DNA from: Anadara kagoshimensis
Taxonomy: Eukaryota; Mollusca; Bivalvia; Arcoida; Arcidae
Assembly: GCA_021292105.1 (NCBI GenBank)
Contig: CM037871.1
Span: 34,965,997-35,029,996, forward strand
Length of the DNA: 64,000 bases
Reading direction: 5' to 3'
The notes below the pieces were generated by a model. That model was given only the letters and a program-made list of their open reading frames with translations, searched no databases and had not been told where the DNA came from. The position numbers and the translations under genes are program-made. Positions 24,476-56,248 of the stretch are shown here, in pieces (position 1 is the first letter of the stretch; every line of letters starts with the position of its first letter).

Positions 24476-24506
<31 letters not shown>

Positions 24507-24592
24507 AGACTGACGGACTGACGGACTGACGGACGACGGACGCCGAGTGATGGCAAAAGCTCACATGGCCTTTAGGCCAGGTGAGCTAAAAA
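23325..24592 (+). mobile_element. hairpin-ended element with ~165-bp tandem units, copy 1
   Basis: Starts with an 8-bp hairpin (AGGCTCAG / CTGAGCCT), then gtatcgctcacctg. About six 165-bp units follow; each carries cccatagggtccaatgt and gtaaagtttggttcaa. Next comes a GACT/GACGG simple repeat (about 24470-24545). It ends in a larger hairpin (AGCTCAC-TGGCC / GGCCA-GTGAGCT) directly before ctaaaa. The unit length is a multiple of 3, which creates spurious open frames. There is no transposase. The layout resembles the pearl elements of bivalves and non-autonomous Helentron (HINE) elements; that placement is an inference. Confidence 0.7.
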
Positions 24593-30250: not shown

Positions 30251-31707
30251 AGAGGCTCCCAGGAGCCTGTATAGCTCACCTTGGTAGAGTTGTTGCAGAA
30301 TGAAAATCAACAGATTGTCTAATGTTTAAATAAATGCTTGAAATTTATTACACAATATTTATTTCTATCACAAAATTTCAATATTATTTCCTTTCAAAAC
30401 TAAACCACTAAACCATATTTCAAAATTTTGAGACAATACATACCAAGTATCATCGACTTTTCATGTATAATACCTGAGAAATTTACCATATCCAAAAACT
30501 AGTCAATGGACCATGGAATTAAGGTCAAGGACAAAAGCCATAAGGCAGTCTGACTGATGTACTATGGTGGCCACCTTTGATTACGTGCGAACATGTCGGA
30601 CACAATATTTCAGGTAGACCACACAAGGACTATTGTCACAAAGTTTGGTTGCAATTGGCCACGTGGTTTCACAGGAGTTGATTTTTAAATGCAGATGTTA
30701 TTTTAAAATACCAAATGTAAAGACCCAATGACTATTGTGGCCGAGTTTGGTTCCAATTGACTCAGTAGTTTCAGAGAAAAACATGTTTGAACGTATTTTT
30801 CCATAGGGTCTAATGTTAAAATATGTTCTCCACTGACAGCCATCTTGGATTTTGTGTGGCCATCAAAAACACCAATGTTGTAAGGGGCCACCCAAAGACT
30901 ATTGTGGCCAAGTTTGGTTCCAATTGGCTTAGGGGTTTTAGAGAAAAAGATCTTTGAAATTGTTCCCATAGGGTCCAATGTTAACCAATGTTCCCCGTTG
31001 GTGGCCATCTTGGATCAGGTGCAGACTTTAAAAAACACGAGTTTCAGAAGGTACCATCTAAGGAATTCTATGACCAAGTTTGGTTCCGATTGGCTCAGTA
31101 GTTTCAGAGAAAAATATCTTTGAACGTATTTTCCCATAAGGTCCAATGTTAAAATATGTTCTCCGCTGGCGGCCATCTTGGATTTGGTGCGGCCCTCAAA
31201 AACCCCAATATTGAAAGGGGCCAATCAAAGACTATTGTGGCCAAGTTTGGTTCCCATTGACTAAAGGGTTTTAGAGAAAAAGATCTTTGATATTGTTCCC
31301 ATAGGGTCCAATGTTAACCTATGTTCCCTGCTGACCGCCATCTTGGATTAAGTGCAAACTTTAAAAACACTGGTTTCAGAAGGTACCATCTAAGGACTAC
31401 TGTGACCAAGTTTGGTTCCAATTGGCTCAGTAGTTTCAGAGAAAAATATCTTTAAACATATTTTCCCATAGGGTCCAATGTTAATCTATGGTCCTCGCTG
31501 GCGGCCATCTTGGATTAGGTGCGGACATGTCGGACACAATTTTTTAAAGTAGACCACCCAAGGACTATTGTGACAAAGTTTGGTTGCAAATGGCACAGCG
31601 GTTTCTGAGGAGTTGATCTTTAACGACGGACGGACGACGACGACGACGACGGACGCAAAGTGATGGCAAAAGCTCACATGCCTTTTAGGCCAGGTGAGCT
31701 AAAAAAA
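30251..31707 (+). mobile_element. hairpin-ended element with ~165-bp tandem units, copy 2
   Basis: Same architecture as 23325-24592. The 5' hairpin is AGGCTCC / GGAGCCT, then gtatagctcacct. Five to six ~165-bp units with aagtttggttccaattggct and cccatagggtccaatgt follow, then a GACG-type simple repeat (31622-31655). The end is agctcacatgcc...ggccaggtgagct followed by A's. It ends about 75 bp from the CERT1 stop, so it borders or overlaps the CERT1 3' end in antisense. Confidence 0.7.
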
Positions 31708-31783: not shown

Positions 31784-31911
31784 TTAAAATAAAATGGGTT
31801 TGTTGGCTGTTGCGTCTTTAACATATGAAGTAAAGCGTTTAACAAATCTCGGATATTCACGCTTATATACTGCTCGTAGAACTGAAGCTGGGGCCCAGCC
31901 ACCAGGATTTA
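31784..31911 (-). CDS. CERT1: CERT1 exon 14 with stop
   Basis: 128 nt: [40 protein letters not shown] and LF then TAA. Near-identical to the human C-terminus. Confidence 0.95.
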
Positions 31912-34689
31912 CTGTAAAAAAAAAAAAACAAATAAATAAATAAATAAATATATCTCTATATATGTACCAATGGCTTACATGTATTACAGAAGTCACTAGG
32001 GCTGAAACGATTCACAGAGGTTTTGATTCTGTTCAATTAATTTTACTCGGTTCGGTATTCCGATTTTTTTCAGGTTCATTTCTGTTTTCTAGTCTGTTTT
32101 GCGTTTTTAACTTTAGTGTAAACAATATGGCATTGATAAATTACATTGATAATCTTGTTTATTAGTTGTTACATGTTATTGTTTAATGGCAATGTTTAAA
32201 ATTTTTGTTAAAAATAAAAATTACATGTACATGAAAGTATTAAAAATCTTGTGTTGACTCTTTTCATCTTTTAAATTGTATTCAGTGTATCATATCGAAA
32301 ATAACTGTATCGCCACCTTTGTTGTCACAATACATATAATATTGCGAGGGGTGTGTATCATTTCAGCCCTTAAAGTCAGACAGTTTGAGTTTTTTTTTTT
32401 TTTACACACAGCCCTATATTCAAGTATATTTAAATTGAAATTTCATACCAACTAGATAAATTCTGACTTATGTTTGCAGTACTTTAAAAGTAAAATTATC
32501 AAATTATAGTAATTTTCTCTATGAACACTGGTTGGAGCAGTATTTCTTTTCTCGAATATCTCAAACAGTCTGATAAATCAAGCTCAAAATTTTAATCATA
32601 TGCACATCAAGTTATCTGGCCCATCAGTGAATGAGCAATCTAAAGCACATGCCTATGGACCACAGAAACCCTCACAGACTATGTTCTAATCCCACTTGGG
32701 CAAATCTTAGTGTGACAAGGTTTGTCAATGTGCTTGCCAATATGCCAGTGGTATTCTCCATTCACTACATTTTGCTGTCACCATACATGAACTGACCACT
32801 TTGATAAAATTGAGAGTATCTTTACTTGTAAAAAACCATTACTTCACTCTATTACACTTTAAAATGATCTGGAGTTTGACTGTATCAAGATATTATGAAT
32901 AAGAAGGACAAAGTAGGCCATAGCTCCTAAATGTATCTAGATTTCTCTATGTAACACTAAATGTATCTAGATTTCTCTATGTAACACTACTACCCGCTTG
33001 GTGCAAACACACCTATAACACATACTGGATATTCTACAACGCACTAAGGCCGTGATTTATTACCGAGTACCCCTGAATTTTTTACTTTTACATTGTACCA
33101 CATAAATGACTGTGTTCTACCCAGTGCGTTGCCAAACTGACAAAAAACCTGTGCAATTACATTTTATAAACACCGTGAAAATACAACTACACCACCAAGT
33201 GGTATGCAGATAGAGAAATTTATTCTATACTTATTCCGTTGTCAAACATATAGAATAACATTTATATTGGGTACATACCATCAGCAGTGTAACTAATTTT
33301 ACATTTAATGTTGTCTCGTGTGATATTACCATCCTCGGGAGGCTCTATAATCGTCTGACAAATCATAGCTACATTCATTATAACACGCACATATTTATTA
33401 GTCTACAAATACAAAAATTACACTTATTTATTTCAAAGTGCCAACACGCACATATTTATTAGTCTACAAATACAAAAATTACACTTATTTATTTCAAAGT
33501 GCCAACACGCACATATTTATTAGTCTACAAATACAAAAATTACACTTATTTATTTCAAAGTGCCAACACGCACATATTTATTAGTCTACAAATACAAAAA
33601 TTACACTTATTTATTTCAAAGTGCCAACACGCACATATTTATTAGTCTACAAATACAAAAATTACACTTATTTATTTCAAAGTGCCAACACGCACATATT
33701 TATTAGTCTACAAATACAAAAATTACACTTATTTATTTCAAAGTGCCAACACGCACATATTTATTAGTCTACAAATACAAAAATTACACTTATTTATTTC
33801 AAAGTGCCAACACGCACATATTTATTAGTCTACAAATACAAAAATTGCACTTATTTATTTCAAAGTGCCAACACGCACATATTTATTAGTCTACAAATAC
33901 AAAAATTACACTTATTTATTTCAAAGTGCCAACACGCACATATTTATTAGTCTACAAATACAAAAATTACACTTATTTATTTCAAAGTGCCAACACGCAC
34001 ATATTTATTAGTCTACAAATACAAAAATTACACTTATTTATTTCAAAGTGCCAACACGCACATATTTATTAGTCTACAAATACAAAAATTACACTTATTT
34101 ATTTCAAAGTGCCAACACGCACATATTTATTAGTCTACAAATACAAAAATTACACTTATTTATTTCAAAGTGCCAAAAGTTTTTTTTATTGTAAATACAA
34201 CCCAAATTGCATTCAGGGGTCAGTTGTTCGAAGTGTGATTAGTTTAATCAACTAATTAGGTCAAAGTTTAAATAATGCATAATTTTGAATCTGTTGTGAA
34301 ATTAATGTTCAAAATGTCGTAATGAATATAATTTCATCAAACTGAAGCACATGGTTATACATCTATGGATTTAGTAATGGTATGTTGATTTTAATTGATG
34401 TTTTGAATTTGTGTGAATCATTGATTAAACAAATATAGTTTGGAACAACTGGGTTCTGATGTAGAAGACAATACTAAACAAGATGGAGCCAAAAACAGGA
34501 TTATTACCATTAACATGGCTCATGTCAGTAAATTACTTATTGATTTGTAACCAAAAATATTACTGCTATTTCCAACCTACTGACATACTCAAGTATGTTA
34601 TTAACAAAATGTTGACACACAATGCACAAGTTAGACAAAGAATGATCATGGTAGCTCATCTGAACACTTTGTGCTCACATTGTGAGAGA

Positions 34690-34720
<31 letters not shown>

Positions 34721-37700
34721 GGTGAGAGTACTTACTGGAATTTGTTCACTATCAGTTGAATAATTAACAACAATCCATCTATCTGGATCTTCATCTGTTT
34801 CTCCGTCTACATGTCTAATATGTGACCAGAACACAGCATCTCTTTGTGACGCTGGCCAAACACGTTTTATAATATTATGACTAATAAATGTATCTTCTGA
34901 CCACCATTCAATGGCTCTACTGCTCTCTAATGTTACTGAAATACAGAAGAAACATTAGTATTGGACATTTTCATACTGTTGACAAAATCCAGGAAAAAGT
35001 AAAGACTTCAAAAAATAATGTACAATCCTATAATATAGGTTGCTTTACAGCCCTCAATTTTGTCCACTAAATGACCAGCTTGTCCACTTTAAATTTGAAC
35101 TTTTGTGACTAGAGAACAGATTTTATTACTGTGTTACAGAATTTTCATGATAATGTTGCTATTTCAGGCAATATAATGGACACTCTACATCATCATTATT
35201 GTTATTAATAACACTGATGTATATAAGTGATTGTAAGTCAGTTTTAAAAATGTGCATTTTTGTTCTCCGTGCCTAAATTTTCCTTCATTTGGAAAAAAAA
35301 AGTTGCCTGGCCACTTGGATTTCCACTGGTCACCAGAAAATTTAATTTGGTGGCCAGCTGGCCACTTAAGTTTTAAAACCCACATTAAGGGCTGTTTATT
35401 TTCATGAAAAGAACATGTAGTGTCAAAGACAGTAGGAGGCTAAATTTGTGAAAACTTGAATTTACCAGCTTGAACTTTAAATGCATGTATTTGTGATTTT
35501 TCACACTTGCTTTGTTTTCTAACAACCTTTGTATTATATACTGGTATCTAAATAAAATGTGTAATAATTCTACCAGGTTAGTATGAAACTCTTTCAATAA
35601 GTGTCTTCACTCACTAATCTATTCAATAAATGACCCCAGGCTCTGCTCAGAATAAGAGCAATGTCTACCTTGATGACCCATTCATGTTGTATCAATGCAA
35701 AGTATCGGTAAGTACACCTCTGTAATTTTCAATTTATCATAGCTGCATAATAAATAACTTTGACTGATATAAATCTCCACAAAATTAGAATTTGAGACTC
35801 AATATAACAAAATCAACATAATCTACAGTATTACAACTTACAATATATTGTAGCTCCAAATTAATATGAAAGTATGTAAGACTATTACATGTATTAAGTA
35901 CATGTAAATAGATTTTTTTTGTCTTTTAATTTCTTTTACTTTGCAAAATGCTGACATATCCCATCTACCTGGTTTTTGTCACTTGATCTATGCACTACAT
36001 TCGGTATTGGTATATGACAAATTGTTTCATGTTGGTTCACATTTAACATTTTGTGCAAAGTTTGATCACAATTCATTCATAGACATGGAATTTGAAACAA
36101 TATTGGGATTGCCAGTCAGAAGGACAAACAGACAGATGGAAAGAATGATTTCTGTATATCCCTATATTCTGTTTGCAGAGGGTATAATTAATGTAGTTTC
36201 TAAGGTACTAACTAAATTAACATGATAATAAATGACTTGTTGAATGGCTAATGCCTAAATGTCATTCAATAATAAGATAACTGTAACTTACCATCCCAGT
36301 CAAGTCTAACATCAATATCCCAGAAATAATGACACACTTCATGACCTGTAATGCCCTGGAACAAAAAAAAACAAACAACTGTTCTCAATAGTTTCAGACG
36401 AGATGCATATATTCCCTCAATAAAAAGTTAATAAAAATAAGTTTAAAGTTTTAAGACTAAATAAACTGATATCACTAACTTACTGAAACTAAAATTGGTC
36501 TTTCCAGTCTAACATCGCTGGACAATCCAGATACTAGCCCCTCCCCCACCCCACCCCACCCCACCCCACCCCACCCCACAAGAAAACACTCATTTACAAG
36601 TTTAATTATTGCTGCATAAAAGAAAAAGGTAGTCAGATCTTAAGGAGCAGACTGGAGTGATGAAATGAGAGTTTTACACCCAACTTTCACTTATATAAAG
36701 GTGGTCAATTTAAGGATGGTGGAGGAAACTACAATATCAGGGTTCGTACAGACATTTTGGACTTCAAATTTAAGGACTTTTTAGGGTCTTTTCAGGGTCT
36801 CATTTGCAAATTTAAGGCCTAATCAGAGGGACAATTTTATAAGAAAAACAAAATCGTGCAAAGACAATTAAATCAATAAAACAATTACTTACATGTCCAT
36901 AGTAACGACACTTGAAGTAGGGGTTGAATTGGGTGTTCTGGAGGGCCAGTACCTTTAAATCACTCATTTCAATGTAACTTATTTATTTATTTATTTTGAT
37001 CAGTCTATTTACAACCATTTAATATCAACACCTATTTGGCAAAAGTCAAGGGCTTTTTGGGGCCTTTAGGATAAATTCAAGGGCTTTTTAGGGTCAGACT
37101 TGTTTTTAGGGTCTTTTTAGGGCAAACCTTAAAATTTAAAGACTTTTCGAGGCCTGTGCGAACCCTGAATATGGAAACCACCAGCCTGAAAAAAAGCAAA
37201 CTGACGAACTTTCTCACACTAGGATCTTAGGAAGTTGGAGAGGCCATGATCCAGAAGTGTGTGCTTTAGACCACTTGTTCACCAGGGTCCCTGCATATAC
37301 AAGGAGGAACAAGTTTATAACCTTTATTTACCTTAACAGTATGACAAGCCTTTAGTGGGTCCACCACCACACCATCAATTTCTAATTCACGTTTATAAAC
37401 TTTAAGATCCCCTTCTTCAGCTATACACTGCCAGAGATCATGTCCATCATCATTCCTGTGCTCCAAATTCTTCAAATGTGTCTCCACTAATTTATTTATC
37501 TATAAGAGAAAATAAACAGGCATACAAATTATCATTTGCTAAAGCTAGAGGAAAATTTGAACAGTAAATATTTCTAGTGGCAACTAATATGTTACACCTG
37601 TCCAAATTAAAATTTACAGCTTGAAATAGAGGATATAAATTTCAGAGAGATTTAAACATTCAGAAACTTTTTTTCATGAAGTAATTAAATTAACCTTTCA

Positions 37701-40700
37701 TGAAGAATTGAGTAATGGGGTTTAATGTTTCAGTCAAGAATATTTCATTTATATTGAGACATCGCCAACTGTAGGCTAAGGTGCAGAAATTTTGCCTGTG
37801 CATTGCACTGATGGCATTATACAGCAAGGTTCTTTAGCGTGCCAAACCTACCGTGGCACAGAACCTCCTTTATTTTAAGTTCCTTCTAAGCTACCACAGT
37901 GGTCCTTTCACAAAGAGGAAACTTATGAGGTGTTAAGAGTTGAGTTGAGTAATGGTGTTTCATGTCCCAGTCAAGAATATTTCACTTATATCGATACTTT
38001 GCAAGCTATAGCAAAGGTGCAAACATTTTGCCTATGCATTTATTGCATTGATGGCATTATTCAGCAGGGTTCTTCATAATGCCACGCCTACCATGAAACT
38101 GGACCATGTTTATTTTAAGTTTCCATCCGAAAGTACTGTGACTTTCATTTCATAATGCCCAGTGCTTTGGAAAAGAACAGTAACTACCCACTTTAAAGTT
38201 TTGGGCAAGACCTGGTCGGGATTAGAACCCACGACATCCAACTAACGAAGCAAGTACTCTACCAACTAAGCTAGCGCAGTGGTCAGGTGTCAAGAGAAGA
38301 ACCTTACACTTTATAATCTAAAACAATAAAGCACTTTGAAAATTCTACTATTGAGAATCTGAGTTGGTGACATGTTTGATATTTGGCACTAAATTTAAAT
38401 TTTATTTTCAGGGCTCAACAGTGTCTGAGAACCAGAGAATTGTTATATGACTTTGTAACTGAACTCTGGAGCTTTTTAAAAGCAAGCACGGTAAATTTTG
38501 CATTAAAAGACTTACCTCATCATATCTGGGATGTGATTGTGCAAGAGAAATCTTTGGTGGTTTTTCTTCTTTAACATACTTTCTTTTCTAAAAAAAAAAA
38601 ACAAGTGAAAAATATTGAAATCAATAATAAACATTTTCAATTTTAGTCAATACTATTAACACATTTAAGTTAAATAATGTATTGAAATTAGCAAACAAAT
38701 GAAGTATAAATTCTAACTCAAACTAAGAATTCCATACAGACATTTTTCCTGATACTTGGATTTCAGAGTATATGTCAATTTTCTCACCTGCTTAAAGCAG
38801 AAATATTCCAAATCTTCAGATTTTTCATGTGTGAAATATAGATTTCTTGAAGAGACTCTGAAATCATCTTTTAAAACAGTTTGTTTAGGTATATCTTTAT
38901 CTTCAATAATATTCCTGATTGTTAAGAAACTAAAAGTTGAGTAGAGTAATGGTGTTTAACATCCCATTCAAGATTCTATCACTTATATTAAAGCTGTTAG
39001 TTCAGGAATGGTGGAGAAAACCAGCCTGCCCAGAAAAAACTAATGACCTTCAGCAAGAGAACTGATATAGTTCCTCACACTAGGATGTATCCAGAGTGGG
39101 ATTTAAACCTAGCCAGTGAGAGACGCTGTTATCCGTAAGTTGGCACTTTAGACCACTTGGCCACTGAGGCCCTGTTAAGTCACTGAGAGAAAATTCCTTT
39201 AATTTTACTGTACCTTTTCTTCGTCTACTTTTTCTTCTAATTTATCCAGACTGGCGTCTATAGCATCATAAAATTCATCTTCTTTGATAGCACAATGTGG
39301 ACCTTCCTGTTATATATACACATGAATATAAAATTACTTTAAATGGAGACTTAAATTTATATTAAAACTGTTCTGATATATGTTGAAGATAATGTGTAAA
39401 ATCAAATCAGACTTCAAATCCTGACACAACTTCTCTAAAAAAGAAAAACAGCACAGCTCACTTAAACATCTACATCATCAAAGTACTTGAACCAAAAATC
39501 TATAACATTCGGCACAGCTGATGTGGTCAGAAGTAAGCTTTTCAGCATGTTTAGGCTAAGGAGTTGAAAGCACTAGAATTTAAAACCTTTAACTTTAGGC
39601 ATAGACAGACAACGTGAAAGAGCAAAATCAGTGCTTCAGATTGTTTTTACAGATAGTGGGCCACAAGGGCCCACCAGGTCAAATAAAAGTGGTCATTTTT
39701 TGTTATAGCGGGTCATGTTTTAACACGTAATTAAATGTTATTGAATCTGTAAATTGATGTACACGTATATAATATAACATTATAACCATGTATAAAACTT
39801 ACTTGTAATGTTTTACTGTGACATTTGATTGTACAATGATAATGAATAAAACATAACAATAAACATATAGTTTATATTTTTTATTCTTTGACACAGCTTC
39901 AAATCTTGTACAGAATGTTTTTCAATGACAATATACTGAACTTTCAATCATTTTCATTTAATACACAATATTGTCACTGTCATTCATCATGGACGTAACT
40001 GAAAGTGAAAGTCGGCACTTGACATCTTCATATGCCGATTTTGTACCTCATGTTTACGTTTTTATTCTATTATCTCGTTGTCTGTTATTTTTTCTTTTAA
40101 TAAGCTTTCCTGGGATCGCCCCAGGAGTATACTGAAGACAAAACATAGCAAAACTGCAATCCGGAAGTTATCGACAGTACAATAATTTCAAAACCAGAGT
40201 CATCATCGGTCATTCGGTCCGGATTGCTAGGATTTTTCAGCAGAACGACGACAATTTTACCGGACATGACCGACAGACCGGTGCTTTTCGCATTGTCTGC
40301 ATAATTAGAAGTAAACTTTTTCAGAATGTTTGTGATGAGGAGTTAAAAATTTATTTTATTTAATCCAAACAAAAATTCTGGGCTTCACTATAAGGCTAAA
40401 ACCTCAGTTTTAATAACTTCAACAAACAATCTCTACATTTTGACATAGAGAAAATGGAAAAGTATGACCTAACACATGCCTTTTGGCAAATATAAGGTGT
40501 GAAATATTGCTAAAAATGTCTAAATCAAGCCTTTTTTGACATCCTTATTAACAATAAAGTCATTCTATTTAGATGTTATTTTACTGTCTAATTAACTTCA
40601 GTCATTCTATTTTTTCCATGCTATTTTGCTGTATATGGTGAAATTTGAAATACTTAACCAATATTAACATTAATCCTTTGTATCTTCCAGGGGTAAGTTG

Positions 40701-43700
40701 TTCGAAGCTTGATTAATTTAATCAATTGATTAGTCAATATTTAAATTGGGTAAAATTTCAGATATATTGTGAAATAAAAGTTGAAACTATCGAAAAGGAA
40801 TAAAATTTCATCAAACTAAAGCACATTGTTATAGAACTATCAATTTCATAATGATATCTTGATTTTTGTTGATGTTGTTCATTTTTGTTAATCATTGATT
40901 AAACTAATCAAGCTTCGAACAACTGGGTCCAGATATCAAGTCAGTTAGAAAATTGTCAAATCTAATTATTAACATCACTTTTTAAAAGTTTCTTAAGTTT
41001 TTCATTAACAACTAAGTAGATGACTATGAAAAGATATAAAACTACTTCACTATGAATAAAGACTAGATGGAACCTTAAGAACTGTGTCACTGTCAAAATA
41101 GCATCACTTATTTAGTATTGCTTCAATAGTTTTTCAATGTTTAACCTCCCAATCAAAAATATTTCACTTATATCGAGACATCGTCAGCTTTAGGCGAAGG
41201 TTCAGAAATTTTGCCTGTGCATTGCACTGATGGGATTATACAGCAAGATTCTTTATTGTGCCAAGCCCACCGTGACACGGGACCACGTTTATTTTAAGGT
41301 TCCATACGAAAGAACTGTGACTTTCATTTCGTAAAGCTGAGTGCTTGGCGAAAGAACAGTCACTACCCACTTTTAAGTCTTGGGTCACTTAGTAGAAGTT
41401 AACTATTTACTTACCTCATAATCAGGTCCACCAATGATAAGTTTTGGTTTATTCTGGTCAGCTGTTGCAAACTTATAAGCTTCTTCTAATTTCTTCCTTC
41501 TTTCACATTCCTATAATAAGCATAGATAAGAGTCAGTATTGGCCACTATCATAAGTTATATTATCTTTTTATGGCAATTTTATTTATCTATGACAAAAAT
41601 TGCATCCTCAACAACCTAGTCCAATCTAGCTATGTCATTATATTTTTGTTTTATCCACAAGAGTGATTCACAAGAAAAACAAATTTCATTTTAGGTATAC
41701 ATGTATTGTGTGCTTTACCAACAAACTGCGTTTATGAAATGATTTGCTACAACAACAGTAATGGATATATATGCAAAACATGTGACAGTCTTTCAATATT
41801 TCTGTCCAAAAACAACATTCTAATGAAATTTTTAAAAGTGAAGTAAAACAATTATATGTGTATTAATAAATCACTGTTTAGAGGACTGGTTGAGGCTGGT
41901 AAAAGTGGAAAGTTCTTTGATTCGAATTATGGGTTTTGAATTTGGGTTGGTTATAGGAAAATTGTTATAATTTATAAACAACCATATTTTTTTTTTAAAA
42001 AAAAGGGTTGCTAGAATCTGTAATGTACTTATTATAGAACAAATTGCACACCTCTTAGGGTTTCTAGCTTATGTGAAAAAAAAACAACATTACCCTTTCA
42101 TGTCTCTTCCTCCATGCATCTTCTCTCTGTGACATAAGTTCTATACAGTGAGACATTGTTGCTATAATACCAGCTGTGGTAGCTTTAAATGTAAAAGCTT
42201 CGCCCTTAAAATCAACAGCATGTCCGCCATGTTGCTGTAGTATAGAGGCTAAAATATAACAAAATCTAGGTTTTAGAACTACAAGTAAAATGGACAAATC
42301 GTACAACAGTTAAACATGTTTATAACAAAGTCCTAGGGACTCTATTTTTAACTTCGTTATGCATATAGTGACTTGGTTACATTGTTATATATAGACTTAT
42401 ATATAGAGAAGCTGTCGGGCCAAATAATTGACTTTGTTCTATCCATGTATTCGTTTTAAGCGTGTTCGTTATATTTGTGTTTTACTGTACACTGGCATCA
42501 GAACTTACTGATCAGGTAAGACTAACTAGTAGTTACTACATGTACATACTTTCCTATCCTTTCTTGAGATTACTGTAGGAACCACTGTGACTGTGACAGT
42601 GAAATTCTCTTTATATCCATAGAAAATCAAATAAATTTGAATAAAGTTTGATATTTTTCACTTACTTGTACCTAGTCGTAACAGGAAATTTGTATGGGCA
42701 TCCGCGATTGTCATAAAGTATGTCTGTAAAAAGGAAAATGTTGGCGGTATGGGGATTTTACACATACAAAAATGACGATGTTTACACCGGAAGTGATGTC
42801 CTTAGTGACGTTTTACGTCATATGCGCAACAGAAGCCGCCATTTGCATGGTTTTTCAACATGTTAAATCTCCATAGCACCAACGTTTTTCCCTATGCAGA
42901 TATATTTTGGGCTAAATGCGGATGCGCATACAGATTTCCTGTTACGACTAGGTACAAGTAAGTGAAAAATATCAAACTTTATTCAAATTTATTTGATTTT
43001 CTATGGATATAAAGAGAATTTCACTGTCACAGTCACAGTGGTTCCTATAGTAGTAGTAAGTTTGGGTACATTTTGATCATAGGTTTTACAAAATCAGTCA
43101 TAAGGATCCCTGTATTTGCCTTGACAAAACATGGATATGCTGTATAATACTGGAGTTTAAATTTTTAATACCATTTTTTCTTTCCTCATTTTAACTTGCA
43201 GCTAAAGATCCTGAGTGGCAGCTAAAGATCATCTTTTTCATGCCCATGACGCTAGAAGCAATTTTTAAACAAAGTACAACACTGGATCCCCATCTTCCGC
43301 CCTTGGACAGAATTTACAAATTGCCTTTCACTCAAATTGAATTGGAGGAAGTTTGCACACGGACTAGAACAGTTCAACTCTAATTTTCAGAAATTATCCG
43401 ATTTTCGTTTTTAGTCTTAAGTTTAAATTGACAATTGTAAGGTTGTAATTTTAACCTCAAAATCGTACAACCTACGCCAAAATCATAAAGGAAGGAGAGT
43501 ATGCCATACCATACAGGGCATCAGAACTCATAAAATCATAGATCTCTAATCATAGATCTCCAAGTGTTCTCTTTTTCTATGACTCTAATCAAGATCTTCT
43601 TGTTTTTTTTTTAATTCAGGCATATGAAGTATGGATATATGAGCAAATACATGCACAAATATGAAATGAAGAATGAAACCATGTGGAAACAAGATATGAT

Positions 43701-46700
43701 GATAAGATGAGATCCCGTAATACATGTAGATGACATAACTTCCGCAAAATGGCAATGAACACATTAATAATTGCACATGAAACTGAAACTTTTCAACTCA
43801 CATATATACAAGTTTTCCTTAATAATTTCTATGTTTCCATTCCTGGTAACCAAAATCGTCATTGGCTACTAATTTCTGAGGAATTCTTTCAAAAAGTAAC
43901 CTATTTTAGCAAATTTGTAAAAAAAATACTTTAAAAAGGACTATATTTTTACAAATTTTGGAAATTTGGCTACTTATTATTTTAAATTTATGGAAACCTA
44001 GAATTTTGTTATAAAATCAAATACAAACACTATTTAAAGTAAAAGCTTGGCTATCATAGCTGCCACTATGTTCTCTATAATTTAAATAGTTCAACCTGCC
44101 TTAAAGGTCACCTCTATATAATTGGCACCTGCTTATAAAGGCCAGTAAAATTATATCTCAATTGTTCTTTATTCATTTTATTTGAACTTGTATATAAAGG
44201 TCACCTGCCCATAAAGGCCACTTTTACAAGTTCCCTTAGGTGGACTTTATAGACAGGTTTGACTGTAAAGTTGAAGTACATACCAAGATCTTTTCCTTTT
44301 GGTCCAGTAAACGGCCCCACATGATCATGATCAGAATCATGAAGATCATCTGGGTCCCCTATGTCATCTGATTCCACTACTGTTAAAATATAAAACAAAT
44401 CATGGGATTAATAATTATAACATATTATATATACATATAATATATAACATTGTACACAAATTAAAAGTTACATACATTTTTTTGTCTACATTTACAATCT
44501 CCAATAAGGCCTGCATGTTTCATCATGTATACATTATTATTTTGTTATTTTTCATTTCAAAACTAGCGTGAAACTTTAAACCATGGTTGAAGAACATGTC
44601 AATCAAAATTCAATAGTATAAGTAATAGCTTCCAGACAAGTACAGTTTTATATAACTATCAATCAGTATCTCTCGGAAGAGACAAATACTCTACTTCCCC
44701 AACATTGCCGAGATGGACGGACCAACAGACATTAAATTTGGTATGCAACACATTATCTTAATATGTAGGTTTACATTTTTTGTAAGTTTGATCAAATTTC
44801 ATCCATAGACCTGGAAGATATGGATCAGACACAAAATGGGATGGGTGGACAGATGGACATGGTGATTTCTATTTACACCCTAAACCTGGTTTGCGGGGGT
44901 ATAATAAACATGACTTACATTCTGTGACTGCACCATGAGCTACAGCTGAAGCACAGCTGTCAAAGTAACTCTGTAATGTGTCAACCTGTCGACACAAGAT
45001 TTCTCGGAATGTATCCATTTCAGCTAACTTTTCTTTCAAACCTCTCCCTCTCTGTGGAAATAAACAATAGATACAATCATAATTGTATAGAGTGAAGGAG
45101 AAATTGGTACAAAACAAAACTTATCATTATATAGTACAGTAAAACCTCGATTCATTGCCACCATTTGTTCCAGTCACATTTTGGTATTATAAAGTGGTCT
45201 GTCAATAAATTGGGGGAGGCAGATAAAGAAAAACATAAACAAAATGTATTTTGGGACTTCAAAATAGTGTGGCGATAAGCGAGGTAGCAAAGTTATCTAG
45301 GGGCATTATACGAGGTTTTACTGTACTATAATAAGTTTATAGTAAAAGGAAAATGATCAATATACTGAATTAAATATTCCTTAAGATTAAGTTTTTCTTA
45401 ATAGAAGCTGGATCAAAATGCACAAACTTGAATTTGTACTTTAATTTACCTAAACATATATATATATATATATATATATACAGTAAAAGTTTGATTTAGT
45501 GCCACCATTTGTTCAGTCTGATTTTTGCGATACATTGAGGGAGACTTAGTAATAAAGAAAAACATACAAGAAATAAGACTTTAGAACTTCAAAATACTGT
45601 GACGATAAGTTGAGCGGCATATACACATGTTCTGGTATGAAAACTATATTTAAAGTTGTTTAAGGACATCAAAAGGTATTGCTTGAAACCAAATTCTTGT
45701 CAAAGCTAGATGAGTGGATGGACAAAGATATACAAAAAGTGACCAATTAAAAACTTATACCACTGTCATGTACATGCAAAGGTATATACTGCCTCCCCTT
45801 GCGTGCCTGGTATATACAAGTCGCTTATGTACCATGGTATATACCTGTGCTGACATGCTAGGGTATATACCCTATCCTGTACATGCCAGGGACATATCCC
45901 CATTCAGGATGTTCCATGGTACAATTATACCTCTGCCTTATACATGTCAGGGTGTATACCCCTAACCTGGAATGTATCCCTGTCCCATATATGGACTTAC
46001 CTTAAAAGATGAGGTGGATGTTGTGGAGAGACTAGTCCCAGAAGTAAGAGATAACATTGAGCCATGTCTACGTAGATTGTTTTCACTGCCATAACCAGAT
46101 TCTGCTTGCTAGTATAAAATAACAAACTTAGTTAGCTTAATACAGATAACATGTAAAGTTCTATAAAAGGAAATTAAACCGTAAATCTCTTTAGTTTTTA
46201 ACTCGAGAATCAATTCTTCTCCAATCTTATAAAATATTACCAGTAAATAAAATCAACCTGAGAGAGAAATGTGCATGTTGATATTCTGACAAGTCTAAAG
46301 ATTTACAATAATTATCGTAATCATGAATGGAATATCTAACCTTGTCACATTGATCTTAGACCAGTAAAATCTTAAAATTATATGGTCTAGCTAGGACAAG
46401 TACGGTAACCTCTGAAGTCTACTGGACCAAGCAAAAATCTATCAGTCCAGAAGTGTAACTTCTGAAATCTACTGATGTAGTCCAGGACAAGAGACTACTG
46501 AAATTAACTGGACCAAACAACAATCCAGTGTCTCAGATCACTAAGTTATAAAACTTACTGGTCTAAAACTAAAATTGAATGAAATTTTTAACCTTAAATT
46601 GTAATGTATCAAGTAGAAACTGGTAAAAATATCCAGATTTATGCATAAAAAGTATGTCACTAGCATACCATGATCATTGTTCTAGAAGCACTCTACAAAG

Positions 46701-49700
46701 TGACAGAGATATCAGATTAAAAATATCTCCCCAACATAAATACTCCCATTCAGAAATCATCTATCATTATGAAGATATCATAAAAATTTCATGAGATTTT
46801 TACAAAAGTCCTACCTGTTACCAACATATCTTAACTATACCAAAAATGCAAAACTTGAACATATATATTATAAAACTGTAGATAAAATGATTAACTTATA
46901 CCAAAACATCAAACAAAATATATAACAAGCAATTTAAATCACACAGTTTTTAGTTCCATTAAAGAAAATTATCAAAGATTGCAGGTAAAGTAGAAATTAC
47001 AAGCAAAGTAGCAAACAAATTTAACCATATATAAATATTTTTAAAACTAGATTTGTCTGAAAGGGACAAATACCTCCTGCTCCTAAATGATCAAGGGGAC
47101 ATAACTCTGTAGGATTGTTTTATGTTGTACATTGTTTTTCAAGCAAAATTACTATACATATGTATTTTTAAAACTTGAATTGTCTTAAAGGGACAAATAC
47201 CTCCTGGCCATATACATCATCATTAGGGATGAAGCATAAATATTTTGAGTAAAGGGCCCAGCTTATTTCAGAAACAAAGTTATAATAGTAAATAGCTAAA
47301 ATGTTTAAATATTTAGGGGCCCAAACTGATTTTTAGGACCCATGGGCTACTGGGCCCCTGCTAATCTTCATCCCTGGTCAAGGAGACTTAACTCTGTAAA
47401 CACAGAATATTTTTTTTTTTTTTTTTTTTTGTATTTTACCTTCATATGGTGTACCAAATATGAAGATTGTACATGTATGTGACAAAGTGTCTTGGTGGAA
47501 GGACAAAATGACATAGTGATGGACAGGTGAAAAAAACGGTGATCCCTCTAAATCCTCAAAAAAATTTTGTTGCATGGTGTATAACAAATAAATGTGTAAG
47601 AATGAACAATTTATAATGGTGTTTTTTTTTGTTTTTTTTTGTAAGAAATACTATGGTATTATGTACTAAAGAAATGCATTTGAAATATATCAGACCACAA
47701 TTTGAACATCCATTATGGGGTATCTATGTCTTGAATAGAATTCTTCAAGCCCTGGACCTAATGGCAGAAAAAAACACTGCTGCATTCATATTTGTTCTAA
47801 GCAATTAGCATAGAACTGAGGTTTGAAATCAATATCAAGTTGAAGCTTACACTAATAGAATCAACTAATTAGTGAAGAGTCAATGAAAAAACCCACTAAT
47901 CCAAATTGATATCTTAAGTCCCTGTATCACATGATAAACATGTGACTGACAATAGTCACTAGAAAGTTAAAACCTGAGAAAAACTATGAAATATAACATT
48001 CTGTTGAAATAAGAACACCAAAAGAAAAGCCAAGAAGAACCACAGCAACATTGAAGCACAGAATGATAGCTAATTTCCAAAGTACATTACTGTAAAATAA
48101 TTACAGAAAGTGAGAAGAAATTCTACCGCAACATAATACTGTATATTGCTTTAATATTTTGTGTGCAGTGATTTTGTTACATTATTTAAAAACTACCTTC
48201 TGCCTTTTAAATTGGGAAAATTTTAAGTTCTGAAATACAGCAAACTGTATAATGGCATGCTTGCAATAGCTTAGGATCCTCAATTTAAAGACATTAAAAG
48301 TGATAAAATTGAACACTTTGTGGGTAAGGACAATAAGACCTAATTTGCTAGTATATTACTGTTGTTTCAGGAAATTTTGTGATCAAATTGGGAAATTTTA
48401 GTAATTATTTCCCAGGGCAAACTACCTTTATTTGGTAGTAATTTTAGGCAAACAAAATCACTGGTGTGAGATTTATGTTCGGGCAATTTTTATTGATGGA
48501 TTCAATCAAAATTTTATGTCTTACATAAAAAGATTTACTAATCACAGACCTGTGGTTTGCAGACCAATGGACACAATTCTATGGTCGATCACAGGTCAGA
48601 GGTCACACTTCAATGACCAATCAGACTAGTGATCACACTTAAATGACCGATTATAGATCAGCGATTGTTACACTTCATTAGTAAGTAGGGTGTTTGTTTT
48701 AAATTTGTGAACATTTACAAGAAAAATATCTATTAAATACTTAACTAAAGTTCAGGCACTCAGAAAATTGATAATTGCAAATGTGAGTACACATATTTAC
48801 TCGGCTCCAGCTTGTGGCTCTGACCATCTATTGTTAACATAGTCTAAGGTCTGACTGATGTTCAAAAATGTGACAGGAGTTACACAACATGATTTTAAAG
48901 AAAATTTAGTAGCACAATAAAATAAAACAAATATTAATTGTGAGTGGCTCAAACTCAAGTGAATGGTCTGTTTAAGAGTGTAACTATAAGCTTTAGATTA
49001 AATGCAGTATATAGACTATGGGCAAAAACAGTTAATGGTTATGTGAGAAACTAAACCTCACCAAGTGTCCATTCTTCTCAGAAATCTACAGATATATTTG
49101 TTTACATTTACACAAATAAACATAGAACAAAAATTCTAATAAAATCTTAGAATAAAAGCTGTGAATTTTAAAGCAAGAAATAAAACAAACTTAATCAGAG
49201 TTAAATTGTCACAGAAGGCTTATATTTCCAACCTTGTAACTGTAACCCAAAATCCTAAACACCATTTGCAACCTTGACCTTTAAAGCATGAACTTCGTTC
49301 ATGATCAACATACTTTACTTCCATGAAGGCCTTGACTTGACAGGTATGACCGGGTTACAAGGCCATGATATACACTTGGACTATGAGATCATTTATATGA
49401 AGTTTCACCAGTTTTGACACAATTTCCAAACATGCACCCCCTGCAGGCTTGGTTTTTATATATGACCTTGCTTCAAGGCCATGCCACACCTTTAAATCAT
49501 GGAGATCTCATTTGTGTGTTCATGAAATCCAAAGCAGCAATAAGTTTTGGCCAAAACAAGACTTTCAATCATACAGCCTTTTTTATCTTGACCTTAAAGA
49601 TATGGCCAAAATTCAAAGCTGTGACACACCCTTGGGCCATAGAAATAATTTGTGTGAACTTTCATCATGAAATTCTTTCAAGTAGCAATGAGTTATGGCT

Positions 49701-52700
49701 CAGACACAGACAGACATAGTGATTCCTATACACTTCTTTAAAGTTAAGTTTGCAAAGGGTATAAAAAAGTCAGAAATACAATGTATCTGACATTCTTGTT
49801 CCAGGTATAGCCTGTCATGTTCTGATAAAGACTAAGTCACCTAGACCTTATTTGAAGAAGATCATGGAGAGAGCTTCCACCAGAAAGATTGATTTACATG
49901 TAACTGTAACTGTGATTCGTTCTAATGAAAAGCATAGTGAACAAAAAAATACATATGTACTCAAAAAGCTATATGATTAGAGTCATTAGACACTACTAAA
50001 ACCATGCTACTAGCACTGATATACAAGTCTTAAACATGGCAGGTACTTCTCATGATCTCATGACAAATTTTGGTGATGTTGCTACCATACCGATTGCAAT
50101 TTTAATGAGACAAAGACTCTCAGTAAAAAGCAAAATCTCTGCTGAGACGATGAGGACAGTCAAAGATATTTCTCTTTCATTCTTAACAATAAAATCTATG
50201 TGTAAACGAATAATTAGTAAATCCAAACAGGCCAGCAAGATAACCACTTCATATGGACCATTTTCACAAAATTTCATAATAGCTCAAAGGACAGTAAAAG
50301 AATATTGGTCGGGGAAAAAATATAACAGAATATTTCAATCCAAAGGACCATAAATTTGTAAATAAAAAAAATCATTGCATTGAAACAGGTTGACAATATG
50401 CACATTATCACTTCCAAGTTCATGTTGATTATTTCCACCAAGTTTCATCAAAATACATTGAGAGGTTTAAAAGAGATGGTCCAGAACCTATAACTCTGTA
50501 AAGAAATCATTGAACCAGAACATTCTGATGGTCTATACATCATTCATATAATATGGACTATTGACACCATGTTTCATGAAAATCCAATAAGTGGTTCAAT
50601 AGAAATGACCTAGAACCCATGACTGAAAAATCTGTTGAACCAGAACAAACTGATACTTCCAAAAACTTTACAGAAATATCAACAACCTAATAGACTAGTG
50701 AGGATTCCATAGAGATAATACAATAACTACATAACTGGAGGATAAACAAAACAAGAGGCCCAATAGGGCCTGTACCGCTCACCTGGGCCATAAACAGCAC
50801 AAAAACACAAGAAATACTACATTTCAGCAGCAATAACTCTGATGTGGATATTTAAATAATAAAAACTAGAAAAACTTAAAACTCAAAGAACACTGTCTAG
50901 AAAAGAGTGCAATGAAAAGTGATGGTGGCCAAGAGTCAAAAAGATTACAAGAGAAAAGATAATTTGATAAAGCTTTACCTAACAGACAAAGCAGAATAAA
51001 GCAGTTAATATGTAAAACAGAAAGAAGACAGCTTAATTATATCAGAATAAGGTCTGTAAGTCATATTTTTCATCAGGGTATATGAACATTCTCTGCATAA
51101 GATTCTTTGGTTTTTAACAATTGTATCCAGAAAATGAAAATTTACTCTGGTCAGGACTTACAGTCCCTATACATGTGTATCAACACCACAAAAAATATAT
51201 GTTTCAAAACAACAGCTATCATCAATATATTAAATAGTGGTTTACTTTTTTTTTAAATTTATCATAGCACATGTATCATACTAAGACCGTTTTTAAAATT
51301 TTAAAACCAAATATTTTTCTGAAGGGTTTTTTTTTTTTTTTTTTTTTTTTTTAATAATTTTGATGAACAGCATAATCTTAGAAACAACTTAAATATATAT
51401 TTGAGGGACAAAAACATTGACTGACTGAACAGTTATATAATTCATGATTTTTTTCAAAAAATAAACTAAAATCTAGAAATTGTTTGCAACTATTTTGACT
51501 ATTTGGAAGTAGGAGTTTGCTTTGTAATATCTACCGCACCTGCAATGGATCAGTATTTTTAAATACCCTGTGTAATTCTATTGTAGTTATCCAGTTGTTA
51601 CGAGCATCTTCATTGGCTGCCCTCAGGTACCATACACAATCATTGACGCTGATATCAAATCTACACTCGTCAAACTGATGAGGCTGAAAATAAAGAAAAA
51701 CACATGCCATATTAACATTTTGTAAAATGTGATTCAGCTTCGTTATATTGTAAGCCTTGCTCAAAGTCAAAGAACAGATAAAAATCTGACATAATGGGTC
51801 ATTATCCCCTACTTTTACTCTAAAGGGTATCCTGTAATATCTTAAGAGTATAGCCACTGATCCATAAAAATGTAGAGTATTTTCAATTTTTAAAACCTTT
51901 TATTAAAAAAAGTATAACTTCTAACAATAATACAGTAACATCATCTTCATTGTGACAATGGCATTTCACAGGTACTTGGGGTCAGGAGTTCAACCCCCAT
52001 TTCAGGCTCAACTGTTATAAGAATTGTAAAGGGTAATGAGGATTTTCAAAGGGTTTTCATACCCTTATTTTACAATTTAAAAAGTATTTTAAAAAAAATT
52101 AAGGGTACCCGGTATTTACACAGATACTCCTCTTATCTGGAGCTCTGAAAGAGTACTTAATTTTTAGCCCTTTTGCATTGTAAGACTTAGTTCCAAGTAT
52201 CACCACATTGTTGCACTAATATGCCAGTTAAACCACTCATATATTCTCTGATATCTCCATGAATAGAATTAAATATGTGCATGTTACATACATGTATGTT
52301 ACATGTTCTCAATCCTATGTCAATTTTTGGCTAGCTCACAATGATAGCAGTTGCAGAGGTTGCTGTCTCGCTGGTCAATTATCCTGTAACCAGTTAAGTC
52401 AGTAACAAGGTCAACTGAGCTTATTGTACTTGCTTCAATTCAGGTCATCATAAGACTTACATGTCCTGGACTAAAATCAAATCAGTACCAATGTTTCTAT
52501 TCCTGGAGGTCAAATTGCCAAAGAGTACTTAATTTTTAGCCCTTTTGCATTGTAAGACTTAGTTCCAAGTATCACCACATTGTTGCACTAATTCCAGTTA
52601 AACCACTATCAAGAGTTATTCTCTGATATCGCCATGAATAGAATTAAATATGTGCATGTTACATACATGTATGTCACATGTTCTCAATCCTATGTCAATT

Positions 52701-55700
52701 TTTGGCTAGCTCACAATGATAGCAGTTGCAGAGGTTGCTGTCTCACTGGTCAATTATCCTGTAACCAGTTAAGTCAGTAACAATGTCAACTGAGGTTATT
52801 GTACTTGCTTCAATTCAGGTCATCATAAGACTTACATGTCCTAGTCTAAAATCAAATCACTACCTATGTTTCTATTCCTGGAGGTCAAATTGCCAGTGGC
52901 TACTTACATGTATTTCTTTAAAAGGACTATATTTACACAAGTTTTGGAAATTTGGCTATTAAAAAATTTCAAAGTGGAAGCTTAGAAGCACTGACACAAC
53001 CCTTGGGTGCAAGTCCAGAACTCTACCTCTACTAAGCCACATGTCATCACAGGAATTCAGAGAATGTCAAACCCTTTAGTCTTTCCTGGGCAACATACCG
53101 GGTAATTCTTTTCACTTAACTGGTAATTCTGAAATTCCTGACTATAAAGAACAGATTTCAAATTCAATGTATGTGTAACCGGAAAGAAAAACGCAGGGTC
53201 GAAGCGGGGATGGAACCTGGGGCCTCCCACACTATAGGTGAGTGCTCTACCACTGAGCTACCCAGACTGCTACCATCCTCCCTTTTTTTTTTTTTTTTTT
53301 TTTGATTCAACTCCCTTAAATTGAAACCACCAGGTTCCACCCTGGGACCAACCTATTGGTCGGCCACTTCCCAGGGTCGACAAGCCCAAAAATGTAACCG
53401 GAAAGAGAAAAATGCAGGGTCGGACCAGTGATCAAACCTGGGGCACTATAGGCCAGTGCTCTACCACTGAGCTACCCAGACCAATACATTCACAAATGCT
53501 CCAAATGAGGGAGGAATTCCCAATTCTAACTGTAAAAACTGTGAAGTTGGCAAAAGTCAAAGGTAAAAAAAAAGCAAAATCTGTTTATCAGATAAGTTCT
53601 AACATAAATATATTTTCTTTCACAATAAAGCAATAGTACGCAGATTACACATTTACAAGTAATAAGAGGGATGTTGTATGGTACCATTAACAGCGTATAC
53701 GGCAGATAACACAAGTGATATGTCTTGTTTCATAGATACACTATATAGAGTAGACAAGCCACTCATCTCACTGTCACTGACCCGACCTCTGGTCATTCAC
53801 ACATCTGGATAGTACAATAAAAGGGCATGTCTGAAAACATGGCTTGGGTCTATCTTCTTAAGCATCCAAAATTTTTAGAACATTTAATTCCAAAGATTTA
53901 TTTTGATTTGGCCTAGCAAATTTTGTCTTTATTGGCAGCTTATTCCATGACAAGCACTAGAGAGTGGTGTTTTTACTATTTACAGTGGCTTTTGAAATCA
54001 GGATTGGGGGTCCAACCGCACTCCCAACTTGGTAATCAACAGAACATTTTTATCTTCTGTTTAAAACAGCTGTATTGAGTTCATCAAAATGAATATTCAA
54101 GATGAGACTCCAAACAAGGATGATTGTCTGTGCATAATGCATACACCTCTGGTTCTGGAAAATTGAACAGAGTACCGATGTAGACAACTTGTAGCTTCTA
54201 CAAAAGAGTTGAGTTGAGTAATGGTGTTTAATGTCCCAGTCAAGAATATTTCCCTTATATCGAGACGTTGTCAGTTATGGGCGAAGGTGCAGGTTCTTTA
54301 GTGTGCCAAGCCCACCAAGACCTGGAACCTCGTTTATTTTAAGTTGCCATCTGAAAGAACATGACTTTAATTTTGTAATTTCGAGTGCTTGGCGAAAGAA
54401 CAGTCACTACCCACTTTTAAGTCTTGGATCAGACCCGGTTGGGGTCTCTACCAACTGAGCTACCACAGTGGTTGTCTACAAAAGATGCCTACTCCTAGAT
54501 TTCAATCAAAGAAATTGTTGGAGCACAATAAAACTTAGACATGTAAAGTAAAACCTTCTTTTATTACCACTAAGAGTCCAGTCAGAATTTTGCATTATAA
54601 AGCTGTTTGGTGATTAATTGCTGAACTTACAAAAAGACCATTAAAAATTTACCACCTTTACTTAGAGACTTCATAAGCAAGGTGTCAAAGTTATTAAGAG
54701 CATTATCACAAGACTTTACCACACATACACACACACACACACACGTATAAAAGTACACACAGTTACACACTAACCATCCCATGTTTTAGGTGATATCAAA
54801 TGTAACTGAACTTCGCACTTCAATTTAAAATAACATCATGTACTAATGTCCGATTATGTGCTCATTATCTCAAATTTAAATATTTGACGTCTGGAGATAT
54901 GACTTAGTAGTCTTTTTGTTTTCTTTACTCTCTATACAAATTTATAGATATATTAAATAAATGCAGATTTTTTTTTTTTTTTTAAAAAACATGAATATTA
55001 ATAATTTGACAGATATAAATAACAAATTATCTCTAACAATGTAGCAATTCTCCAATTTACATCAGATCTCTGCTGTTTTTGGATAAAATAAATTAAAAAC
55101 TTTCGGTAAACTTTAGTCCAATATTTATTGCTTCAGAATGCATACTTTTTTCCAAAGTGTGAAATAAGGCTACACCTAAAAATGAGGTGGTATAAGGTCA
55201 TAAATAGATATGAGATACTATTTATTTTAATTATGTAACATTTTTTTCTAAAATAAAGCATTACATAATATTAAATAATGCATTTAACATACTCAATTAT
55301 TCAGAATTCAAGAAAAAATTGTTCCAGAGACACCGTTACAAACTACAAATGAAAGTAAAAATTTTGCTTTATCAATATGAGTGTACAACTTGCATCTCCC
55401 AGACTCCCCTACACCTCTGATATTGCACAGAAAACAGCAATTTTTTTTTTCAAATATCAAAAGATTTTGATTATCAATAATATTAAAAAAACCATTATAA
55501 TTTCTATTAAAACCCCATTGCTATTAAATTTTATTAAACAAGTAACTTATTAAAGGGACACTGAAGTCTAGCCAATTTGACCAAAATATGAAAATTTATG
55601 TTAAATTATTATTATATTGAAAATTTCACCTTTTTATTCGCCGAAATAAAAAAGATATAGAAGTTTAAAAAATCAAAATTCGTAACCTCAGGCCATTTTG

Positions 55701-56207
55701 GAACTCTTCAATCGGGAGGTACGAAAACAAGTTGTGACGTCATGTGTGAACAACCACTCTTCCTAACTACTGTTTATATATACTGAAGTGTCGCATCTTA
55801 CGAGTTGTTACTTATCCATAATATTAGAAATGGCGCATTATCTTTTTGATTTTGAGTCAGAATATTAGGGAACTGAAAGTAAACCAGAGAATTTATTCAA
55901 ATCGGATTCATGCGAAGTTATAGATAATGATCATCGTTTGTAGGTTTGGGACATATAATGAAACTGCCGAGCAATGAACACTTAGAGGGAATGCATTTGC
56001 TGCACAGAAATCGTACAGATCAAAGACAAAATTAAAAATTGCAATTTATTTAAAAATGTATAATCGACAGCTTTGACCTTGAGATCGTGCATTTCAACCA
56101 AGAAGTTTTGCGATTAGCAACGATTGCAAGAAACAACATAAGACGAGGAGACATTACACCATGGCCAGTCATGAAAAAAAAAACATTTACGGTTGATGAG
56201 AATAAAG

Positions 56208-56248
<41 letters not shown>

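What the first reader, a model, noticed from the sequence alone, without database searches (positions are those of the whole stretch)
33382..34174. A CERT1 3' splice site, with the first 21 nt of its exon, is tandemly repeated 13 times
The 61-bp unit, read on the coding strand, is intron sequence, a good acceptor (aatttttgtatttgtag) and the first 21 nt of START-domain exon 13 (TNKYVRV). Thirteen copies end to end give 13 identical acceptors; only the last leads into the full exon. Using any earlier acceptor and reading on gives [11 protein letters not shown] and then a stop, truncating the START domain. Each unit's ACTAAT also looks like a branch point (yUnAy) about 57 nt before the next AG, so the array may supply its own branch sites. 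One difference in 793 bp implies recent expansion or ongoing homogenisation. Either the spliceosome reliably skips twelve perfect decoys, or the array acts as a splicing switch or length-variable modifier of CERT.
Basis: partly seen in the sequence, partly recalled or inferred. Interest (0 to 1): 0.9.

Follow-up and report, generated by a model that had tools for sequence, protein, structure and literature searches.

The report
Repeated CERT1 splice acceptor, length-variable array
In one copy of a lipid-transfer gene (CERT1) of an unnamed animal, a 61-letter piece containing the start signal of an exon is repeated 13 times, while a near-identical second copy in the same assembly has it once, so this is probably a length-variable repeat that the cell splices past and a natural test of how splicing chooses among identical sites.

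Summary
At 33382-34176 there are 13.03 copies of a 61-bp unit with one substitution. Each unit carries the acceptor of a CERT1 START-domain exon plus its first 21 nt. Earlier acceptors give [15 protein letters not shown].

The copies belong to head-to-tail blocks of about 0.8 Mb with a 1000-N run between them. They differ at 2.9% of gap-free columns; the aligned CERT coding (12 exons) shows no amino-acid difference. I read them as two unmerged haplotypes, so 13 versus 1 is most likely allelic. At least three other tandem arrays also differ between the copies.

Most likely this is a young minisatellite seeded across an intron-exon junction. The last acceptor, the only one with the whole exon and a near donor, is probably used; decoys are mostly skipped, with leakage going to NMD. 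The closest precedent is the ABCA7 VNTR, whose unit carries a splice donor. No RNA data were available. New variant of a known kind; not a demonstrated switch.

The parts
33382..34176 (-). 61-bp minisatellite, 13.03 copies; each unit on the coding strand = last 40 nt of the intron (with the AG acceptor) + first 21 nt of the exon
   Evidence: TRF; unit listing; the only other copy found within 3 mismatches in the assembly is C15:35832211-35832271
33382..33442 (-). last unit in transcript order; its acceptor (..tttgtag|ACT at 33403/33402) is the one that leads into the full exon
33279..33402 (-). CERT1 penultimate detected exon (START domain), 124 nt, [21 protein letters not shown]
   Evidence: tblastn to human CERT aa 516-556, 58.5% identity; exon ends and donor GTATGT; PDB CERT START E=6e-53 for joined exons
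33403..34735 (-). intron containing the array, 1333 nt here, 597 nt in the single-unit copy; donor GTAAGT at 34735-34730
34736..34935 (-). preceding CERT1 exon (..RVWPASQRD.. to EQIP), spliced in phase 0 to TNKYVRV
33809..33869 (-). the one variant unit (unit 8 on +), substitution at 33847 = acceptor position -18
31787..31911 (-). last CERT1 exon ([19 protein letters not shown], stop after); its junction makes decoy stops predicted NMD targets
31787..62161 (-). CERT1 gene, 12 exons detected (PH domain begins in the first, START in the last ones)
   Evidence: tblastn; Pfam PH E=3e-8 and START E=1.2e-16

Best explanation
A young minisatellite (VNTR). Shown: 13 near-perfect 61-bp units span the intron-exon junction of CERT1 here, and exactly one unit lies at the same place in a second, colinear copy of the locus. 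Inferred: the two copies are the two haplotypes of one diploid individual left unmerged in the assembly, so the locus is heterozygous 13/1. Inferred: the array arose by local tandem duplication with 2-bp (AA) homology at the breakpoints and grew by slippage or unequal exchange. Inferred: in the 13-unit pre-mRNA the acceptor nearest the exon is used almost always, because it alone joins the complete exon and lies 124 nt from a donor. The 12 upstream acceptors have 21 nt of exon, no good donor of their own, and would give exons of 185 to 856 nt. Rare use of a decoy, mainly the nearest ones, yields [15 protein letters not shown] 149 nt or more before the exon's end, an expected NMD target. So the array is a mostly tolerated decoy field with at most a small cost.
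For: Array and single-unit copy: (795 bp against 65 bp between the same flanks). Second CERT copy: in 1629 aligned bp (12 exon matches) 11 differences, 8 synonymous; the other 3 lie in intron letters at match ends. Haplotype reading: 16 probe pairs head to tail at offsets of 811-834 kb; a run of exactly 1000 N between the blocks; homology of the first block reaches 35559989 at 83% and goes on to the run at 66-80% in tandem repeats; 1388 mismatches in 47,175 gap-free columns, 2.9%. Purge_dups paper: in outbred species of high heterozygosity, with most insects and marine animals as its examples, overlaps between haplotypes are kept in assemblies (passages). General process: of 18 TRF rows with period >=20 in the window, 10 had both flanks placed in the second copy; 4 of 10 differ in length (61, 43, 375, 63 bp); 8 rows could not be placed. 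Skipping of decoys: with beta-globin 3' sites duplicated so that the upstream one had 14, 55 or 205 nt of exon, splicing in extract went only to the distal site (PMC5389562, section read). ABCA7: unit carries the exon-18 donor; one-unit retention was 2 +/- 1% of transcripts (PMC5954066, section read). Decoy product.
Against: No RNA was available; use of the last acceptor is inferred. Decoys share 40 intronic and 21 exonic bases with the true site, and the acceptors of all units but the transcript-first one have the same CTAAT at -57, so sequence alone does not mark the last one. The same extract study found that duplicated 3' sites spliced poorly overall and cites earlier work in which upstream exon length changed the choice. 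In ABCA7 other alternative transcripts are common: exon 19 skipping 12 to 45% by tissue, rising with VNTR length. The haplotype reading lacks read depth; withheld stretches also read N in this tool. Not every probe found a partner: 6 of 12, 0 of 4 (three of these lie outside the blocks as later bounded), 3 of 20 (list cut at 40), 7 of 8 complete pieces. The second block has no partner for its first 15 kb after the run (13-kb satellite plus 1.8 kb) in the 26 kb fetched, and the blocks diverge more near that end (89-90% at two probes; 83-93%).
Confidence: 0.62

Rival explanations
1. Length-dependent brake: many equal acceptors are bound at once by U2AF and U2 snRNP, which slows or blocks intron removal, so the 13-unit allele yields clearly less CERT mRNA (a hypomorph covered by the single-unit allele).
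For: Extract work: two strong 3' sites are occupied at once on about half of molecules, such RNA splices poorly, and a competitor oligo that lowers double occupancy raises splicing several-fold (PMC5389562, section read). Each unit has the acceptor, and the acceptors of all but the transcript-first unit have the CTAAT branch candidate. ABCA7 VNTR length correlates inversely with expression (abstract passage).
Against: No expression data here. Extract substrates are not cells. The 12 aligned coding exons of the array copy show no amino-acid change against the other copy, so no decay of this allele is visible.
Confidence: 0.2
2. Regulated poison switch: decoy use is controlled and sets CERT level through stop-containing transcripts and NMD.
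For: The decoys computed (1, 2, 3 and 12 units back) give the same early stop at nt 34 and at least 149 nt to the exon end.
Against: Decoys absent from the second copy; unit found only at these two loci; unit and double unit RNA fold no better than shuffles (z -0.55 and -0.08); no sign of conservation beyond recent copying, though no other species could be compared.
Confidence: 0.04
3. The two copies are true tandem paralogues from a ~0.8-Mb segmental duplication, not alleles; the array is then fixed or variable in one paralogue.
For: Both lie on one scaffold in the same orientation; a tandem duplication would give the same order. The second block does not begin at the N run but about 15 kb after it.
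Against: A 1000-N run lies between the blocks and homology of the first block runs up to it, weakly at the end; aligned CERT coding without amino-acid change; many insertion/absence differences and 2.9% mismatch fit alleles of an outbred animal.
Confidence: 0.12
4. Assembly artefact: the 13 copies do not exist.
For: Only that raw reads could not be seen.
Against: 795 bp is well within long reads; one unit differs inside the array; other arrays in the window differ between copies in the same way.
Confidence: 0.04

Closest known systems
ABCA7 intron-18 VNTR (human; PMC5954066, passages and one section seen)
   Same: Minisatellite that starts at an exon edge, with a splice site in the unit; length varies between alleles; a one-unit shift gives a frameshift and stop and is a minor product (2 +/- 1%).
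   Different: There the repeated signal is the donor (5' site), 25 bp, alleles from about 0.3 to 10.7 kb; here the acceptor plus 21 nt of exon, 61 bp, 13 against 1 copies, in CERT1 of an unnamed animal. Effect on splicing is measured there (including abundant skipping of the next exon), not here.
Laboratory duplicated 3' splice-site competition substrates (PMC5389562, two sections read)
   Same: Identical acceptors in tandem, upstream ones with a piece of exon (14, 55, 205 nt).
   Different: Two sites, man-made, in extract; here 13 natural ones.
Repeats that carry whole exons (EBV W repeats, passages; LPA KIV-2, listing)
   Same: Tandem units with splice signals.
   Different: Those units carry acceptor and donor (recalled), so units can be spliced in as exons; this unit has no good donor by eye, so units probably cannot.
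Intronic VNTR that changes splicing by length (TERT VNTR6-1; listing only)
   Same: Length-variable minisatellite in an intron.
   Different: No splice acceptor in the unit is mentioned in the part of the abstract that was shown.

Membership tests
Minisatellite / VNTR | Head-to-tail copies of a 10-100 bp unit | tested here: met
   13.03 x 61 bp, 99% match
Minisatellite / VNTR | Copy number varies between chromosomes | tested here: inconclusive
   13 against 1 between two copies of the locus in one assembly; allelic only if the copies are haplotypes
Splice-site-containing VNTR (ABCA7 type) | Each unit holds a splice-site sequence of the adjoining exon | tested here: met
   Each unit holds the acceptor and first 21 nt of the CERT1 exon
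Splice-site-containing VNTR (ABCA7 type) | Unit count or sites alter splicing | not testable with these tools
   No RNA data
Poison-exon / AS-NMD switch | Alternative site use introduces a stop more than ~55 nt before a junction | tested here: met
   Stop at nt 34, at least 149 nt to exon end
Poison-exon / AS-NMD switch | Element retained by selection | tested here: inconclusive
   Second copy lacks the decoys and has the same aligned CERT coding, which speaks against; other species were not available
Haplotypic duplication (unmerged alleles) | Colinear near-identical blocks meeting at an assembly gap | tested here: met
   Blocks ~34764538-35560853 and ~35576952-36375466 on C15, 1000 N and a satellite between; the first block's last ~0.9 kb matches only as repeats, and the second starts ~15 kb after the N run
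Haplotypic duplication (unmerged alleles) | Half read depth on each block | not testable with these tools
   No reads held

The most novel reading that the evidence does not exclude
A natural, length-variable brake on a lipid-transfer gene: 13 near-identical acceptors in cis titrate or trap early spliceosome factors, so unit number sets CERT output by slowed intron removal rather than by a protein change, and the animal is heterozygous 13/1, giving an internal control.
Probability: 0.12. Interest if true: 0.75.

Novelty: new variant of a known kind. Interest (0 to 1): 0.5.

Why it matters
How the spliceosome chooses among identical 3' sites has been tested with man-made two-site substrates (for example PMC5389562). 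Here nature offers 13 sites with the same 40 nt upstream and 21 nt downstream (one site differs at -18), differing only in position and wider context, next to a matched one-site copy with the same aligned coding. Allele-resolved RNA from one animal would say whether exon completeness, order of transcription or multiple occupancy decides. It also shows that an exon edge can be caught in a minisatellite without visible damage to the coding sequence, and that false duplications in assemblies can be used to read both alleles.

Tried and rejected
Donor sites inside the unit that could make each unit a small exon: by eye only weak matches (AA|GTGTAA, TAT|GTGCGT); not scored. RNA structure as a marker of the array: rejected, unit and double unit fold no better than shuffles. 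A mobile-element origin of the unit: rejected, 14 of 14 hits within 3 mismatches are at the two CERT loci. Chance of an array falling on a splice junction: summing unit lengths of the array loci by hand (about 1.2 kb) times 22 junctions (12 detected exons) over 64 kb gives roughly 0.4 expected per window if placement were random, so the position alone is not remarkable; this ignores selection and is a rough figure. Acceptor matrix from this gene: built from 10 of the 11 acceptors of the detected exons (that of the exon at 37511 was left out); the array acceptor comes 8th of 10 by left-out score (2.28; range -0.21 to 16.72), and 2 of 44 AG sites in the intron score above it; too small a matrix to say more. 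Paper searches for an acceptor-carrying VNTR: (15 of 78 papers listed; 15 of 1,825; 12 of 39; 7 of 7; 15 of 111; 1 of 1) showed none by title and start of abstract; that is not proof that none is in print. The organism was not identified, and no related species' genome was available.

Full report
Observation. The array is real in the assembly: 33382-34176, period 61, 13.0 copies, 99% match. The unit listing shows 13 units that are identical but for one base at 33847. The gene on the minus strand is CERT1. The joined peptides of the last three exons match solved CERT START domains at E=6e-53 and Pfam START at 1.2e-16; the first exon matches PH at 3e-8. The exon beside the array is 33402-33279, 124 nt, between an exon that ends at 34736 before a GTAAGT donor and the last exon. 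Each unit holds the 40 nt before this exon and its first 21 nt.

Decoy products. Extending the exon by 1, 2, 3 or 12 units gives exons of 185, 246, 307 and 856 nt, all reading [11 protein letters not shown] then stop at nt 34, with 149 to 820 nt left to the exon end. With a further exon downstream, these are expected NMD targets where the 50-55 nt rule holds (established knowledge). So truncated CERT protein is not the expected main outcome.

Branch points. The unit has one strict yUnAy, CTAAT, whose A is 57 nt before the next exon start. In the single-unit copy the nearest strict match is TTTAC at 60 nt; for the transcript-first acceptor here it is TTTAC at 58 nt. An AG (aataag) lies between this A and the acceptor in all three cases.

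A second copy of the locus. Searching the whole 1.115-Gb assembly with the unit, up to 3 mismatches, gives 14 places: 13 here and one, perfect, at C15:35832211 (the tool calls repeat counts lower bounds). A 221-bp query over the exon also finds only these two loci. The second place lies in a colinear copy of the window's region with the same 12 CERT exons found and one unit, 65 bp between flanks against 795 bp. In 1629 aligned bp there are 11 differences, 8 of them synonymous. The other 3 fall in intron letters at the ends of tblastn matches: two behind the AAG|GTAAAT donor of the exon at 37511 and one in the acceptor triplet of the exon at 36358. The two copies differ at 1388 of 47,175 gap-free columns over 29 matches kept after a length, E-value and colinearity filter.

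Alleles or paralogues. Probes taken along C15 pair up, 16 pairs in all, at offsets of 811-834 kb, from 34769763/35580530 to 35550030/36366436. Partners at this offset: 6 of 12 pieces (one piece is a dispersed repeat), 0 of 4, three of which lie outside the blocks as later bounded and one inside, 3 of 20 (list cut at 40), 7 of 8 complete pieces repeated. The two blocks are head to tail. Between them, at 35560854-35561853, is a run of exactly 1000 N. The first block matches the second at 83-93% to 35559989; its last 0.9 kb before the run matches only at 66-80% in tandem repeats. Homology of the second block begins at 35576952, after a 13-kb satellite of 1683-bp units that starts at the run and 1.8 kb more without a partner in the 26 kb fetched. 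Two contigs that carry the same region and meet at a gap is the pattern of a heterozygous overlap, which the purge_dups paper describes for outbred species of high heterozygosity (PMC7203741, passages). Withheld stretches also read N in this tool, so the run is not proof. I put haplotypes at about 0.85.

Expansion is local and general. Of 18 TRF rows with period 20 or more in the window, 10 could be placed by both flanks in the second copy. Four differ: 61 bp (795 against 65), 43 bp (329 against 114), 375 bp (748 against 370), 63 bp (189 against 63, one flank at 83% identity). Six agree to within 1 bp, but one of them (22072, 46 bp) has a weak flank and TRF gives it 122 bp here and 157 bp there. 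Eight rows could not be placed. So this region makes and loses tandem copies readily; the CERT array is the extreme one among those placed and happens to cover a splice junction.

How it probably works. Decoys and true site have the same 40 nt before and 21 nt after (one unit differs at -18); otherwise they differ only in wider context. The first acceptor in the transcript has the native upstream sequence but only 21 nt of exon; the last has the full exon and a donor 124 nt on; those between have neither. With duplicated globin 3' sites, the upstream one having 14, 55 or 205 nt of exon, splicing in extract was exclusively to the distal site but very inefficient (PMC5389562, section read). With two strong sites, about half of the molecules carried two U2AF/U2 sets, and the substrate spliced poorly (section read). 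In ABCA7 the VNTR unit carries a donor; retention of one unit was 2 +/- 1% and did not depend on length, while skipping of the next exon was 12 to 45% by tissue and rose with length (PMC5954066, section read). From these I infer mostly normal splicing from the last acceptor, a small leak into NMD, and perhaps slower removal of the intron. The matrix from ten acceptors of this gene gives the array acceptor 2.28, 8th of 10 and in the range of working ones (-0.21 to 16.72), and two other AGs in the same intron 6.94 and 2.34: look-alike sites that are ignored are ordinary.

Verdict. The feature is real, young and probably polymorphic. It is the acceptor-side counterpart of the ABCA7 VNTR. A switch is not supported; a length-dependent brake is open and testable.

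Noticed in passing
34684-34728: A (GA)22 tract, read as (TC)n on the coding strand, begins within a few bases of the GTAAGT donor (34735-34730) of the preceding CERT1 exon; it could bind pyrimidine-tract proteins (inference).
   Followed up: no
23648-24509 and 30730-31589: Two arrays of related 167-bp units (shared ATAGGGTCCAATGTTAAACTATGTTC.. core by eye), about 6 kb apart; neither could be placed by both flanks in the second copy, so they may be insertions absent there.
   Followed up: no
L011, L014 and L016 (joined-copy positions 22782-24186, 53160-54274, 77116-78454) and L057 (C15:35551715-35553260): Arrays of a 145-bp unit, alike by eye, occur three times in the second copy's region and once near the N run; TRF found none of that period in the window.
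   Followed up: no
L058-L059, C15:35561855-35575174: A 1683-bp unit, 7.9 copies, 98% alike, starts right after the 1000-N run; a 120-bp piece of it has identical matches on C19, C5 and C2.
   Followed up: partly
283-1385: ORFs on +, the first with a TRPM tetramerisation domain (Pfam PF16519, E=1.7e-16): probably the end of a TRPM channel gene. In the second copy the later ORF matches in two different frames and ends differently; not checked whether that part is coding.
   Followed up: partly
58943-59131 and 52148-52895: A 63-bp unit, 3 copies against about 1, and a 375-bp unit, 2 against about 1, between the two copies of the locus.
   Followed up: partly
C15:34764538-36375466 (outside the window): About 0.8 Mb of this assembly appears twice in tandem, probably a retained haplotype; gene counts here would be inflated.
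   Followed up: yes
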